Shown in pieces: positions 30,758-55,926 of a DNA stretch of 64,000 nucleotides; positions within the stretch are counted from its first letter, which is position 1; each line of letters begins with the position of its first letter. The position numbers and the translations under genes are program-made. The stretch comes from Bacilli bacterium (GTDB lineage: Bacteria > Bacillota_I > Bacilli_A > RF39 > UBA660), in NCBI GenBank assembly GCA_017406955.1, contig JAFQXM010000012.1, positions 62,001 to 126,000 on the forward strand. The letters run 5' to 3'. Under the pieces are notes generated by a model. It made no database searches. It was not told where the DNA came from and saw only the letters and a list, made by a program, of their open reading frames with translations.

Positions 30758-30783
30758 AATGAGAAAACTCATTCTATTTTTTT
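30752..30783. terminator. bidirectional terminator
   Basis: A 12-bp stem AAATAGAATGAG/CTCATTCTATTT with a 4-nt loop, between convergent genes. Confidence 0.9.
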
Positions 30784-31781
30784 TCAAGTACCTCTTCATA
30801 AACTTGTTTTAACTCCGAACCTACTTTATTTAAGTTTCTTTCTTGTGCCACTTTATAAGCATTATTACCAAGTTGTGGTAATTCTTTATTAACTATTTTT
30901 CTTATTTTTTCTTCAAATTCACTTAAACTACTAGCTTTATAAACATTTACTCCTTCTTCTAACCAATCTTTAAAAACTGGTATATTTCTAATAACTGATG
31001 TTTTTTTACAGGCACAAGCTTCTATTATAGGAATACCTTCCGTTTCTTCATGAGTAGGAAATAAGAAAATATCACATCCCCACATAGCTTTTTTTATATT
31101 TTCTCTACTTACATAGCCTGCAAATATTAAGTTTGGTAATTTTGTTTTAACTGCTTTTTTTACTTTTTGTGGTGCGATCGCTAAAGAACTATGTCCAAAC
31201 CAAATAAACTTATATTCTGGCATTTTTTTTGCTAGTTTTACAAAATCTATAATACCTTTTCTTTCAATATATAATCCAATACCAATAATTACTTTATCAT
31301 TACTCTTTAATCCATATTTACTTCGAAATTCTTTTTTAAAACCTGCTTCGTTCTTAAAATAATCTAATTCAATACCATTAGATATAGAATATATTTTTCT
31401 TTTAATACCATATCTTGTAAGTACACGTTTTGAATATGGTGTTGGAGTAATAATTACATCTCCTAAACTATAACACTTAATTAACCATTTTTTAAAAATT
31501 GGTGATATATGTTCACTAAGAATAAAACTTTTCTTAAAATCTTCTTCCGTAGAATGTGCATGATATACTACTTTTTTACCAGCCTTTTTTGCTTTTTTAG
31601 CCAACTTATATGATTTAGGACCATAATAATTTAAATGTAAAATATCATAATCCTTACTTTTTATATCAGAAGTATATTTAACTCCAACAGCTCTAAGAGC
31701 TTTTTTTTGATGTCTAATAGCCTTCCCTAATCCACTCTTAGAAAATAATTTTTCTCCTTCAGTATAAAGCAAAACTTTCAT
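30774..31781 (-). CDS. GT4-family glycosyltransferase, probably glycolipid-forming
   Basis: A 335-aa GT-B retaining glycosyltransferase. Features are an N-terminal GLGKAIRHQKKAL acceptor loop, DILHLNYYGPKS, YHAHSTEED, ISNGIELDYF, the GIGLYIERKGIIDFVKLA donor-domain start, and the E-x7-E motif EETEGIPIIEACACKK. It resembles the diacylglycerol glucosyltransferases of Mollicutes and streptococci, so membrane glycolipid or lipoteichoic anchor synthesis is a reasonable role. The very basic surface (many Lys) fits membrane binding. It is a single-gene unit. Confidence 0.78.
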   Translation of the reverse strand: MKVLLYTEGEKLFSKSGLGKAIRHQKKALRAVGVKYTSDIKSKDYDILHLNYYGPKSYKLAKKAKKAGKKVVYHAHSTEEDFKKSFILSEHISPIFKKWLIKCYSLGDVIITPTPYSKRVLTRYGIKRKIYSISNGIELDYFKNEAGFKKEFRSKYGLKSNDKVIIGIGLYIERKGIIDFVKLAKKMPEYKFIWFGHSSLAIAPQKVKKAVKTKLPNLIFAGYVSRENIKKAMWGCDIFLFPTHEETEGIPIIEACACKKTSVIRNIPVFKDWLEEGVNVYKASSLSEFEEKIRKIVNKELPQLGNNAYKVAQERNLNKVGSELKQVYEEVLEKK

Positions 31782-31875: not shown

Positions 31876-32565
31876 TTATTTAAATTTACTATCTATTTTT
31901 ATAGTATCTTTTAATTTAATATAAGAAAACATAAACATATTTATAATAAAGATAAAAAAGATTATTATAAATATATGTGAAGTTCTCATACAGCAATAAT
32001 CGTAAATACCATGTAGTATAACTGGTATAAATATACTTTTTAGTTTATTAACACTTTCTAATTTATATTTTTTACTTTTACTATAATACTTAGCCATACT
32101 TAAGTAATAACCCATAAATATCGCAAAACAAGTATGTCCAGGTATCGCAATTAATCCTCTATAAATACCTACTGATATTTGACCTTCACTAATAATATAA
32201 ATTATATTTTCTACTACTGAAAAACCTAAAGCTATAAATACAGAGTAAACTATTATATCATAAAACTCATCAAACTCTTTATTATTATATCCTAATTTAT
32301 ATAAGAAAGACCATTTGAATAATTCTTCTAAAAAAGCTACAAATATAAACACATAAATAAATAACTCCATAGTATTAAGTTTACTTATTTCAATATTTAA
32401 AGGAATTATTCTATAAAAAATAATAAGTAATACAGAAGATAAAATACCTAATAGAAAGAACTTTAAAAGTAATAGTTTTGGTTCTCTATGTTTATCTTTT
32501 CTATATATATAACTACCTATTAATATAATAGGTAATATAGCAATAAATAATAATACTATTCTCAT
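31876..32565 (-). CDS. PrsW-family intramembrane metalloprotease
   Basis: A 229-aa protein with about seven hydrophobic segments. The family signatures are in order: FLEELFKWS (EExxxK, about 78-85), FSVVENIIY (ENxxY) and IPGHTCFAIFMGYY (the GH motif), then ILHGIYDY. PrsW proteases start regulated proteolysis of anti-sigma factors such as RsiW. No anti-sigma factor is adjacent. It lies 9 nt downstream of the OapA-like gene, probably co-transcribed. Confidence 0.82.
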   Translation of the reverse strand: MRIVLLFIAILPIILIGSYIYRKDKHREPKLLLLKFFLLGILSSVLLIIFYRIIPLNIEISKLNTMELFIYVFIFVAFLEELFKWSFLYKLGYNNKEFDEFYDIIVYSVFIALGFSVVENIIYIISEGQISVGIYRGLIAIPGHTCFAIFMGYYLSMAKYYSKSKKYKLESVNKLKSIFIPVILHGIYDYCCMRTSHIFIIIFFIFIINMFMFSYIKLKDTIKIDSKFK

Positions 32566-32573
32566 AACTCCTC

Positions 32574-33173
32574 CTATTTACATTTATAAAATATTGATAC
32601 TACTTTAGAAAATTCATATAAAATAATATTACTCTTATTAATAGCAAAACTCTTACCTAATGCTTTTCCCCCTATAGTTAAACTAGATATAATACCTGTT
32701 ACTATTAAAGTAGTTATTAGTATATCAAAAGAATAATCCTTTACAAGTATTGTTGTAATGGCTATACCAGAAGCTCCTGAAACTACCCCACATATATCAC
32801 CTACTACATCACAACAAAAACTAGATACTTTATCTGCATTTTTCTTAAACTTTACCGCAACATTTGCACTCTTAACTTTTCTAGAACTCATAGAATGAAA
32901 AACAGACTCATCACCAGCAGTTACAGATACACCTATAATATCAAATATTATTCCTAAAAATATAAATAATAAAGTTATTATTATACTTACAATAAGAGTA
33001 GATTTTTTTATACTTATTTCCGATATAAATGATAAAAATATCGATAACATAAAAGAGATTAATAAAATAGTTCGAATCCATCTCCAATTAACTAATTCTT
33101 TTTTACCCTTTCTCCTAGTTTGTATTCTTAAATTTCTTAATTCATTATTCTTACTTTTTTCCCTTCTGTTCAT
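32574..33173 (-). CDS. oapA: OapA-like membrane protein (OLE RNA partner)
   Basis: A 199-aa protein with an Arg/Lys-rich cytoplasmic N-terminus (NRREKSKNNELRNLRIQTRR), then four membrane segments at about 32-53, 58-84, 122-142 and 148-170. The conserved middle, DIIGVSVTAGDESVFHSMSS followed by DVVGDICGVVSGASG, resembles the OapA family, which has weak similarity to CNNM/CorB Mg2+ transporters. OapA binds OLE RNA at the membrane in Alkalihalobacillus. Here the ~600-nt RNA gene lies 0.6 kb upstream in the same direction. The start overlaps the Cys-rich gene by 23 nt. Identification is from recalled family features, not a search. Confidence 0.65.
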   Translation of the reverse strand: MNRREKSKNNELRNLRIQTRRKGKKELVNWRWIRTILLISFMLSIFLSFISEISIKKSTLIVSIIITLLFIFLGIIFDIIGVSVTAGDESVFHSMSSRKVKSANVAVKFKKNADKVSSFCCDVVGDICGVVSGASGIAITTILVKDYSFDILITTLIVTGIISSLTIGGKALGKSFAINKSNIILYEFSKVVSIFYKCK

Positions 33174-33756
33174 ATTTTTTCTCCTTAATTAAAATTATAG
33201 TATTAATTATAAATCTAAAAAACATTCTCAAAGAACCAATTATCAAAGTTCCTGTATATAAGTCATATAAAACTTGTTTTTCAGTAGAAAAATAATCTGT
33301 TTGTAATATAATTCTTTGTCTCATATTTAATAATTTTAAGATCTTTATATCATTAAATTTTAATGGTTTGCATTTTTTTCTTCCTATACCACAAACAAAT
33401 AATTTACAAGCCAAATTTTTAGTAGTACAACCCTTATTAGATTGATAAACACATAATCCACAGCAACCATTTATTCTTTTACTGTTATTTAGCCATTGTG
33501 ATTTGCACTGGCAATTTTTAAATTCACAAAGATCTATTCCTCTATAATACTGATCCACTTCATCACAAGCAACATCAATAATATATTCTAATCTTTTTTT
33601 TCTACTTTTTATATTAAGAGCATCTACTATTGGTTTAACATTATATTTATCATTTTCTATTTCAAATTTTGTGAATTTAAATATAAATGTTCTATAAATA
33701 CGTAATAATTTATAAAATCTATTTAAGTCTTTTTTATTTTTAATATTTATAAACAT
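33151..33756 (-). CDS. Cys-rich membrane-associated protein next to OLE-like RNA
   Basis: A 201-aa protein of unknown family. The centre (about 75-130) has a dense Cys cluster: LCEFKNCQCKSQW, GCCGLCVY, GCTTKNLACKLFVCG and KKCK, about 13 Cys in 60 residues. That is enough for an Fe-S cluster or several zinc sites. A hydrophobic C-terminal segment (IIGSLRMFFRFIINTIILI) may anchor it. It lies between the large RNA and the OapA-like gene, overlapping the latter by 23 nt, so it is probably part of the same functional unit. Confidence 0.6.
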   Translation of the reverse strand: MFINIKNKKDLNRFYKLLRIYRTFIFKFTKFEIENDKYNVKPIVDALNIKSRKKRLEYIIDVACDEVDQYYRGIDLCEFKNCQCKSQWLNNSKRINGCCGLCVYQSNKGCTTKNLACKLFVCGIGRKKCKPLKFNDIKILKLLNMRQRIILQTDYFSTEKQVLYDLYTGTLIIGSLRMFFRFIINTIILIKEKKYEQKGKK

Positions 33757-33786
33757 AACATACTCCCTACTTTGTTATTATATCAC

Positions 33787-33813
33787 AAAAAAAGACAAAG
33801 GTTAACTTTGTCT
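33787..33813 (-). terminator. terminator of the large non-coding RNA
   Basis: AGACAAAG/CTTTGTCT stem with a 5-nt loop and seven T on the minus strand. Confidence 0.88.
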
Positions 33814-34388
33814 AATTTATTTGATTGGCAATCACTTGGTAAACTTTGGGCCTTAGGTCAAGCAGGATTTCCCTAACTTCTACATAATCGTTACCAATTA
33901 TGCGGTTCCCCATTTCTAGAAGTTAATACAAATTCTGTATGGCTTGATCACCACTTAGTACCCACTGCAATCCCAAATGACGTCACTCTAGGAGATTTCC
34001 CCACCAAACTTTATTACTAATTCTTTTTTGCAAAAATAGTTTCATAACGCAATTCTTATAAAAGTCGGCCTACTAATATAAGAAAGATCATTAATCCCAA
34101 TATTTTCACTCAAGACAAGCTACACTGCACATAACTTTCGCCACAATACAGGTTTAATCCTATTTCGTAATAAGTCATAGGCTTACCACAATAATAGGTC
34201 TCCACAGATAGTGGGTCCTTCTCTATATGCCATTACAGAGGGCCCATTACCTTCATCTTCAGCATCCACCCCAAACTGGGCGTATGAAGCAAACACCAAA
34301 GGTTTCACAGATATGCTCTTTAATGGTTGTTTATTCCCATCCTCGCAATAAAGTAATTGACTAGAATAGTGTGCCATCATCAATTACG
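33787..34388 (-). ncRNA. large structured RNA, probable OLE RNA
   Basis: About 600 nt without a credible gene. GC is near 40% by line counts, against well under 30% around it. A consensus promoter (34395-34423) and strong terminator bound it precisely. OLE RNAs are about 600 nt, occur in anaerobic and extremophilic Firmicutes, and are nearly always followed by the membrane protein gene oapA; a matching gene is found at 32574. I could not align it to the OLE consensus from memory, so ROOL or another large RNA class remains possible, though those lack an OapA neighbour. A 66-codon frame at 34183-34383 has no homologue-like features and is ignored. Confidence 0.68.
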
Positions 34389-34394
34389 CGTATA

Positions 34395-34423
34395 ATTATA
34401 ACATATTTTAAAAAAAATGTCAA
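34395..34423 (-). promoter_or_regulatory. consensus SigA promoter of the large RNA
   Basis: TTGACA, 17-nt spacer, TATAAT: a perfect match on the minus strand. Its -35 box is the 3' arm of the preceding terminator. Confidence 0.88.
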
Positions 34424-55697: not shown

Positions 55698-55774
55698 AAA
55701 TAAACTCCTTTTAATTATAATATAGTGTGGATATATACTTTGTTATAATATTGATTTTATTTTTTAATATATAT

Positions 55775-55858
55775 CTTACGAATCACTAATCCGTAGTAGC
55801 ATCCGCCGAATATTTCGATAACTACTAACCTCGTCAACTATTTAAAGTCCTGGCGCTT
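55775..55858 (-). promoter_or_regulatory. glmS ribozyme riboswitch
   Basis: The minus strand has the conserved core in order: AAGCGCCAGG, GTTGACGAGG, GTTATCGAAATATTCGGCGG, ATGC, and a P4-like hairpin TACGGATTAGTGATTCGTA. Self-cleavage would occur just before the GCGCC near 55857. It lies about 80 nt before glmS. An AAAGGAG site and a six-codon frame (MNNRKE) precede the cleavage site; their use is unknown. Confidence 0.93.
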
Positions 55859-55926
55859 AAATGAATTTTACTCCTTTCTATTATTCATTATATGTATATT
55901 ATATCATAAAAATTTATATAAAATAA

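What the first reader, a model, noticed from the sequence alone, without database searches (positions are those of the whole stretch)
33787..34388. Probable OLE RNA with its own consensus promoter and terminator
Seen: a ~600-nt gap with no gene, GC near 40% in a genome below 30%, a perfect TTGACA-17-TATAAT promoter at 34395-34423 and a strong terminator at 33787. Known: OLE RNAs are ~600 nt and are found beside oapA, with roles in Mg2+, cold and ethanol stress. Inference: the downstream OapA-like gene makes OLE the best class, in a gut-type Bacilli lineage rather than an extremophile.
Basis: partly seen in the sequence, partly recalled or inferred. Interest (0 to 1): 0.85.

Follow-up and report, generated by a model that had tools for sequence, protein, structure and literature searches.

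The report
OLE RNA in a tiny-genome gut bacterium
The gap encodes a complete copy of OLE, a known large membrane-associated RNA, here in a gut bacterium with a 1.1-million-base genome that keeps only one of OLE's three essential protein partners; the RNA class and its presence in such bacteria are already known.

Summary
The finding holds. Rfam's OLE model (RF01071) matches window 34393-33809(-) end to end at 366 bits (E 6e-104); no other RNA family comes close. The promoter is the only perfect TTGACA-17-TATAAT in the 64-kb window, the terminator is real, and the RNA is the window's most G+C-rich 585-nt stretch. OapA (CNNM-fold membrane protein) lies downstream, but a 201-aa Cys-rich ORF intervenes. 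The host has a ~1.14-Mb genome in a Bacilli order of uncultured gut bacteria, almost certainly RF39, where OLE was already reported. In that order 167 of 288 genomes carry OLE. OapA tracks OLE almost perfectly (54 of 55 with, 0 of 25 without). OapC is absent from 80 of 80 genomes and OapB-sized KOW proteins from 40 of 40, so the likely complex is OLE plus OapA. All four known dimer-contact loops are present; the P13 tip attributed to OapB binding is missing from all four copies in its genus. A consensus-type promoter at the RNA's start is order-wide. In passing, three relatives carry a 378-381-nt mini-OLE without P5-P8, shorter than any variant in the papers I read. The window RNA is a new member of a known kind.

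The parts
34395..34423 (-). ole promoter: TTGACA (34423-34418), 17 nt, TATAAT (34400-34395), TG before the -10; predicted start about 34388
   Evidence: equivalent promoter (10 or more of 12 matches) in 100 of 118 relatives
33809..34393 (-). OLE RNA gene (ole), RF01071, full model 1-616; full-length type with P7 and P8
   Evidence: 366 bits, E 6.1e-104; no competing family
34322..34341 (-). P4 hairpin with A-rich loop (published dimer contact)
   Evidence: naming from PMC12265935
34276..34281 (-). P5 loop GCCCAG, published kissing partner of the P6 loop in the other monomer
   Evidence: exact in 103 of 111 full-length order copies
34227..34234 (-). P6 loop AAUGGCAU, kissing partner of P5
   Evidence: exact in 92 of 111
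34125..34198 (-). P7 (34198-34159) and P8 (34151-34125), both lost in published variant 2
34065..34072 (-). L9.3 loop UAGGCCGA with the self-complementary GGCC (symmetric kissing loop of the OLE dimer)
33925..33942 (-). P13 hairpin with a GAAUU loop; the consensus GGNNAC tip is missing
   Evidence: 28 of 134 order copies lack it, including 4 of 4 of this genus
33874..33926 (-). P14 with an intact GGUAAC tip
33787..33813 (-). intrinsic terminator AGACAAAG-UUAAC-CUUUGUCU-U7
   Evidence: terminators follow ole in 38 of 92 relatives
33777..33805 (-). possible separate promoter for the downstream genes: TTAACC-17-TATAAT with a TG before the -10 (10 of 12)
   Evidence: consensus match only
33151..33756 (-). 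201-aa Cys-rich ORF between ole and oapA; probably a passenger, not an OLE partner
   Evidence: no Pfam or NCBIfam family; relatives in 53 of 288 order genomes; absent between ole and oapA in the other loci examined
32574..33173 (-). oapA, 199 aa, CNNM-fold membrane protein
31876..32565 (-). PrsW-family intramembrane protease; a protein of similar kind and size follows oapA in G001 and G003 of the genus
30774..31781 (-). LTA glycolipid-anchor glycosyltransferase, IagA/BgsA family
   Evidence: NF053513, 485.5 bits, above its cut-off of 460

Best explanation
The element is an OLE RNA gene. It is transcribed from its own housekeeping-type promoter and ended by its own terminator, giving a ~600-nt noncoding RNA. 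The RNA most likely dimerises through its P4, P5/P6 and L9.3 loops and is held at the membrane by OapA, a CNNM-fold protein encoded just downstream, forming a stress/Mg2+-related ribonucleoprotein as in Halalkalibacterium halodurans. In this host the particle must work without OapB and OapC. Shown here: RNA identity, promoter and terminator sequences, dimer loops present, OapA gene and fold, OLE-OapA co-occurrence, absence of an L7Ae-family OapC and of any third small KOW protein. Inferred: transcription, dimerisation, OapA binding and the stress role, all from work on other species.
For: RF01071 match end to end, 366 bits, E 6.1e-104, no competing class. OLE in 4 of 4 genus and 167 of 288 order genomes. 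OapA in 54 of 55 OLE+ and 0 of 25 OLE- genomes; best fold matches of the OapA model are CNNM/CorC Mg2+ transporters. OapC family PF01248 in 0 of 80 genomes, while the control rings in B. subtilis. KOW matches in G000 above the cut-off are only an L24-sized and a NusG-sized frame. Promoter of at least 10/12 at the RNA's start in 100 of 118 relatives, 36 perfect. L9.3 is self-complementary in 91 of 110 full-length order copies, switching between GGCC, AGCU, GUAC and UGCA.
Against: No expression data exist. The P13 tip is lost in this genus. A foreign ORF separates ole from oapA here, and in G003 ole and oapA lie on different contigs. G068 has ole without a detectable oapA. OLE-negative members of the order also lack MpfA-type CNNM proteins, so the published idea that MpfA replaces OLE/OapA is not visible in this order.
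Confidence: 0.9

Rival explanations
1. OLE here is a decaying relic: the gene is recognisable, but the RNP no longer functions after loss of OapB, OapC and the P13 tip.
For: OapB/OapC absent; P13 tip lost in the genus; 121 of 288 order genomes have no OLE match, and the 25 of these that were tested have no OapA.
Against: 366-bit full-length match; all four dimer loops present; perfect promoter retained in 3 of the 4 genus members, and L003 carries the same TTGACA/TATAAT at the RNA start by eye although the script picked another hexamer pair; OapA intact and tracking OLE almost perfectly. Decay should not preserve these together.
Confidence: 0.05
2. Unidentified lineage-specific proteins replace OapB and OapC, so the RNP is not partner-poor.
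For: 106 of 134 OLE RNAs of the order keep the GGNNAC tip of P13 although OapB was not found in the order, as if something still reads it; bS21, a further published OLE partner, is present in 35 of 40 genomes.
Against: No candidate protein was found beside ole apart from OapA; the Cys-rich neighbour is not associated with ole elsewhere. The tip may instead serve an RNA-RNA contact, as P14 has the same GGNNAC tip.
Confidence: 0.3
3. The RNA is the leader or a processed part of one ole-oapA transcript, not an independent unit.
For: H. halodurans ole lies in a polycistronic transcript (PMC12265935); 54 of 92 order copies show no terminator between ole and oapA by a strict test.
Against: In this window a strong terminator and a second promoter-like site separate ole from the downstream genes.
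Confidence: 0.15
4. Another large structured RNA (ROOL, GOLLD, raiA) or a small-protein gene.
For: None found.
Against:: the next best Rfam match of any class has E 2.8; longest overlapping ORF 66 aa.
Confidence: 0.01

Closest known systems
OLE RNA, full-length type (RF01071; H. halodurans, Clostridium acetobutylicum, C. botulinum)
   Same: End-to-end match; P4, P5, P6, P7, P8, P9, P12-P14 present; GGCC L9.3; oapA downstream
   Different: Small P11-like hairpin (model about 424-435) and the P13 GGNNAC tip are missing; own promoter and terminator; no OapB or OapC in the host; small-genome gut host
OLE variant 2 (RF39 clade) of Fernando and Breaker 2024, PMC11332333
   Same: Almost certainly the same order of hosts; OapB and OapC absent
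   Different: Variant 2 lacks P7 and P8 (about 490 nt in this order); the window RNA keeps both (585 nt). Both forms coexist in this order
OLE variant 1 (TANB77 clade) of the same paper
   Same: Reported to often lack the P13 tip
   Different: Variant 1 has shortened P7-P9; the window RNA does not
OapA and CNNM/MpfA Mg2+ transporters
   Same: Window protein 32574-33173 models as a CNNM transmembrane domain
   Different: No CBS or CorC_HlyC domains; only weak sequence similarity to PF01595

Membership tests
OLE RNA (RF01071) | Covariance-model match above the gathering score over the whole model | tested here: met
   366 bits against 50, positions 1-616
OLE RNA (RF01071) | About 600 nt, noncoding, highly structured | tested here: met
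   585-nt match, ~602 nt from predicted start to terminator; longest overlapping ORF 66 aa; z -2.9
OLE RNA (RF01071) | oapA next to ole | tested here: met
   oapA is the second gene downstream here and the immediate neighbour in most relatives
OLE RNA (RF01071) | Dimer contact loops (P4 A-rich, P5/P6 kissing, palindromic L9.3) | tested here: met
   Present by sequence; order-wide counts. Dimerisation itself not tested
OLE RNP as in H. halodurans | OapC (L7Ae family) encoded in the genome | tested here: not met
   0 of 80 genomes including the host; B. subtilis control positive
OLE RNP as in H. halodurans | OapB (small KOW protein) encoded in the genome and P13 tip present | tested here: not met
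   Only L24- and NusG-sized KOW frames above cut-off in the host; P13 tip absent. No OapB-specific model was available. Not a defining feature of the RNA class
OLE RNP as in H. halodurans | Membrane localisation; cold, ethanol and Mg2+ phenotypes | not testable with these tools
   Needs a culture or heterologous expression
OapA | Transmembrane protein of about 20 kDa, CNNM-like, co-occurring with ole | tested here: met
   199 aa; CNNM structures are the top 5 PDB matches, probability 0.87-1.00 though E above 0.01; 54/55 against 0/25
ROOL / GOLLD / raiA RNAs | Rfam match | tested here: not met
   No match at E up to 10

The most novel reading that the evidence does not exclude
In this order the OLE particle is reduced to RNA plus OapA, and the RNA itself has been pared in steps (about 600, 540, 490 and 380 nt). 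The 378-381-nt mini-OLE keeps P1-P4, a P9 with a palindromic loop and all of domain 2, but drops P5-P8 with the k-turn, the OapC and bS21 sites and the P5/P6 kissing loops. If it is functional, those parts are accessories and the working core of OLE is P4, P9 and domain 2 together with OapA.
Probability: 0.45. Interest if true: 0.65.

Novelty: new member of a known kind. Interest (0 to 1): 0.4.

Why it matters
The function of OLE has been an open question for about 20 years. A lineage that keeps OLE and OapA as an almost inseparable pair while lacking OapB and OapC separates core from accessory parts, and its naturally shortened RNAs are ready-made deletion mutants. The order also offers an independent test of the dimer model: the L9.3 palindrome changes identity but stays self-complementary.

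Tried and rejected
The Cys-rich ORF between ole and oapA as a new OLE partner: its relatives (53 of 288 order genomes) occur elsewhere in their genomes, and it is not between ole and oapA in the other loci examined; rejected as a passenger. A phage origin for it: no PHROG and no viral-contig relative. MpfA as a replacement in OLE-negative relatives: strong CNNM matches in 4 of 55 OLE+ and 0 of 25 OLE- genomes, so no replacement seen in this order. Missed OLE in the negatives: 25 negatives lack OapA too, and 36 others stay negative with laxer filters. A phylum-wide sample for outgroup OLE RNAs gave only the same family, so no positive control for the OapB/P13 relation was obtained. A first regex for P13 mis-anchored and was replaced. 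PDB sequence search with OapA: nothing. The two OapB papers are not held, so the assignment of P13 rests on Rfam stem order and secondary descriptions.

Full report
Observation. The ~603-nt gap on the minus strand is as described. The promoter TTGACA-17-TATAAT (34423-34395) is the only perfect one in the window and the terminator stem 33813-33793 with its T-run is real. The RNA has 37.9% GC against 25.3% for the window, higher than any other 585-nt stretch. No gene-sized ORF overlaps it. The predicted transcript folds better than its shuffles (z -2.9).

Identity. cmscan gives RF01071 (OLE) over 34393-33809, model 1-616, 366 bits, E 6.1e-104. With relaxed thresholds nothing else is credible; ROOL, GOLLD and raiA do not appear. 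The host genome (1.136 Mb, 15 contigs, 94% complete) holds one copy. All four genomes of the genus have OLE, and so do 167 of 288 sampled genomes of the order. Related loci come from MAGs titled Bacilli, Tenericutes, Mollicutes or Erysipelotrichaceae, many from gut samples. OLE in RF39 is published (PMC11332333).

Partners. The protein of 32574-33173 aligns with proteins found beside ole throughout the order. It occurs in 54 of 55 OLE-bearing and 0 of 25 OLE-lacking genomes. Its model (pLDDT 83) matches CNNM/CorC Mg2+ transporter structures first. This is OapA. The L7Ae family that contains OapC is absent from all 80 genomes tested, with the B. subtilis control positive. KOW proteins above the cut-off are of L24 and NusG size in the host, and no OapB-sized third KOW protein was seen in 40 genomes; an OapB-specific model was not available, so this is somewhat weaker. 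bS21 is present in 35 of 40 genomes whether or not OLE is. Strong MpfA-type CNNM matches are rare and not found in OLE-negatives. This agrees with the published statement that RF39 lacks OapB and OapC, but does not show MpfA replacing OLE within the order.

Anatomy of the RNA. The window RNA keeps P4 with its A-rich loop, the P5 loop GCCCAG, the P6 loop AAUGGCAU, P7, P8 and an L9.3 loop with GGCC. These include the dimer contacts seen by cryo-EM in other species (PMC12286853, PMC12265935). Compared with the model it lacks a small hairpin near position 430 and the GGNNAC tip of P13. Stem names follow the order of stems in the Rfam structure and the descriptions in PMC9723947 and PMC12265935. 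Across 134 copies from the order, 106 keep the P13 tip and 28 do not; the 28 include all four of this genus. So most OLE RNAs in a lineage without a detectable OapB still carry the loop credited with OapB binding. Either the loop has another role (P14 carries the same GGNNAC tip in 130 of 134), or another protein reads it.

Dimer test. Among 110 full-length copies with a resolvable P9.3 stem, 91 have a self-complementary tetranucleotide in the loop: GGCC 48, AGCU 25, GUAC 13, UGCA 2 and three others. About 33 would be expected by a generous chance estimate. The published switches are GGCC to GAUC or AGCU (PMC12286853); GUAC and UGCA add to these. The loops were found by single-sequence folding, so a few may be mis-registered, and related genomes are not independent events.

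Transcription. A promoter-like pair with at least 10 of 12 consensus bases lies just upstream of the conserved 5' motif in 100 of 118 relatives, 36 of them perfect, usually 11-23 nt away. Terminators after ole were found by a strict test in 38 of 92. Independent initiation thus looks order-wide, while termination before oapA varies. H. halodurans instead makes a polycistronic transcript (PMC12265935). In the window a second promoter-like site after the terminator could serve the downstream genes. Consensus matches are not proof of use.

Neighbourhood. Between ole and oapA the window carries a 201-aa Cys-rich ORF. Other genomes carry other inserts at this place (a 330-aa membrane protein in L130, a 787-aa protein in L132), and L003/L128 has a tyrosine-recombinase-like ORF directly after the ole terminator, with oapA on another contig. 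The interval seems to take up passengers.

Mini-OLE. Three genomes of two genera (G029, G037, G271) have an OLE match of 378-381 nt spanning model 1-616 at 134-139 bits, with a promoter-like sequence upstream; oapA starts within about 15 nt downstream. P5-P8 are replaced by a short hairpin; P4, a shortened P9 with a TGATCA loop and domain 2 with both GGNNAC tips remain. PMC11332333 set score cut-offs of 235 bits with its own model, which would probably have excluded such RNAs; I did not find them described in the papers read. Their function is untested.

Verdict. The window RNA is an ordinary, complete OLE RNA of a clade already known to have it; what is added is the partner-poor setting, the order-wide promoter, the palindrome covariation and, outside the window, the mini-OLE.

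Noticed in passing
L257:1501-1878 (+), L259:1501-1881 (+), L258 (minus strand); genomes G029, G037, G271: Mini-OLE of 378-381 nt lacking P5-P8, with a TGATCA palindrome in the P9 loop and oapA starting within about 15 nt of its 3' end. Shorter than any OLE variant in the papers read.
   Followed up: partly
134 OLE copies of the order (L001-L034, L156-L255): The P13 GGNNAC tip, credited with OapB binding, is kept in 106 of 134 RNAs although no OapB was found in the order.
   Followed up: partly
110 full-length OLE copies of the order: The L9.3 loop switches between the palindromes GGCC, AGCU, GUAC and UGCA, supporting the symmetric kissing loop of the OLE dimer.
   Followed up: yes
L128:1367-1968 (-) and downstream (genome G003): In a sister species a tyrosine-recombinase-like ORF sits directly after the ole terminator, and oapA is on another contig (L129); possible mobile-element insertion between ole and oapA.
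   Followed up: partly
window 33151-33756 (-): Cys-rich 201-aa protein without Pfam, NCBIfam or PHROG family; relatives in 53 of 288 genomes of the order, sometimes as neighbouring copies.
   Followed up: partly
80 genomes of the order: OLE-negative relatives also lack MpfA-type CNNM proteins (0 of 25), so the published OLE/MpfA replacement pattern is not visible here.
   Followed up: partly
window 55720-55868 (-): glmS ribozyme (RF00234), 80.1 bits.
   Followed up: no
L136 and L137 (genome G202): Two different ole-oapA loci in one MAG; may be a second strain or contamination rather than a real duplication.
   Followed up: no
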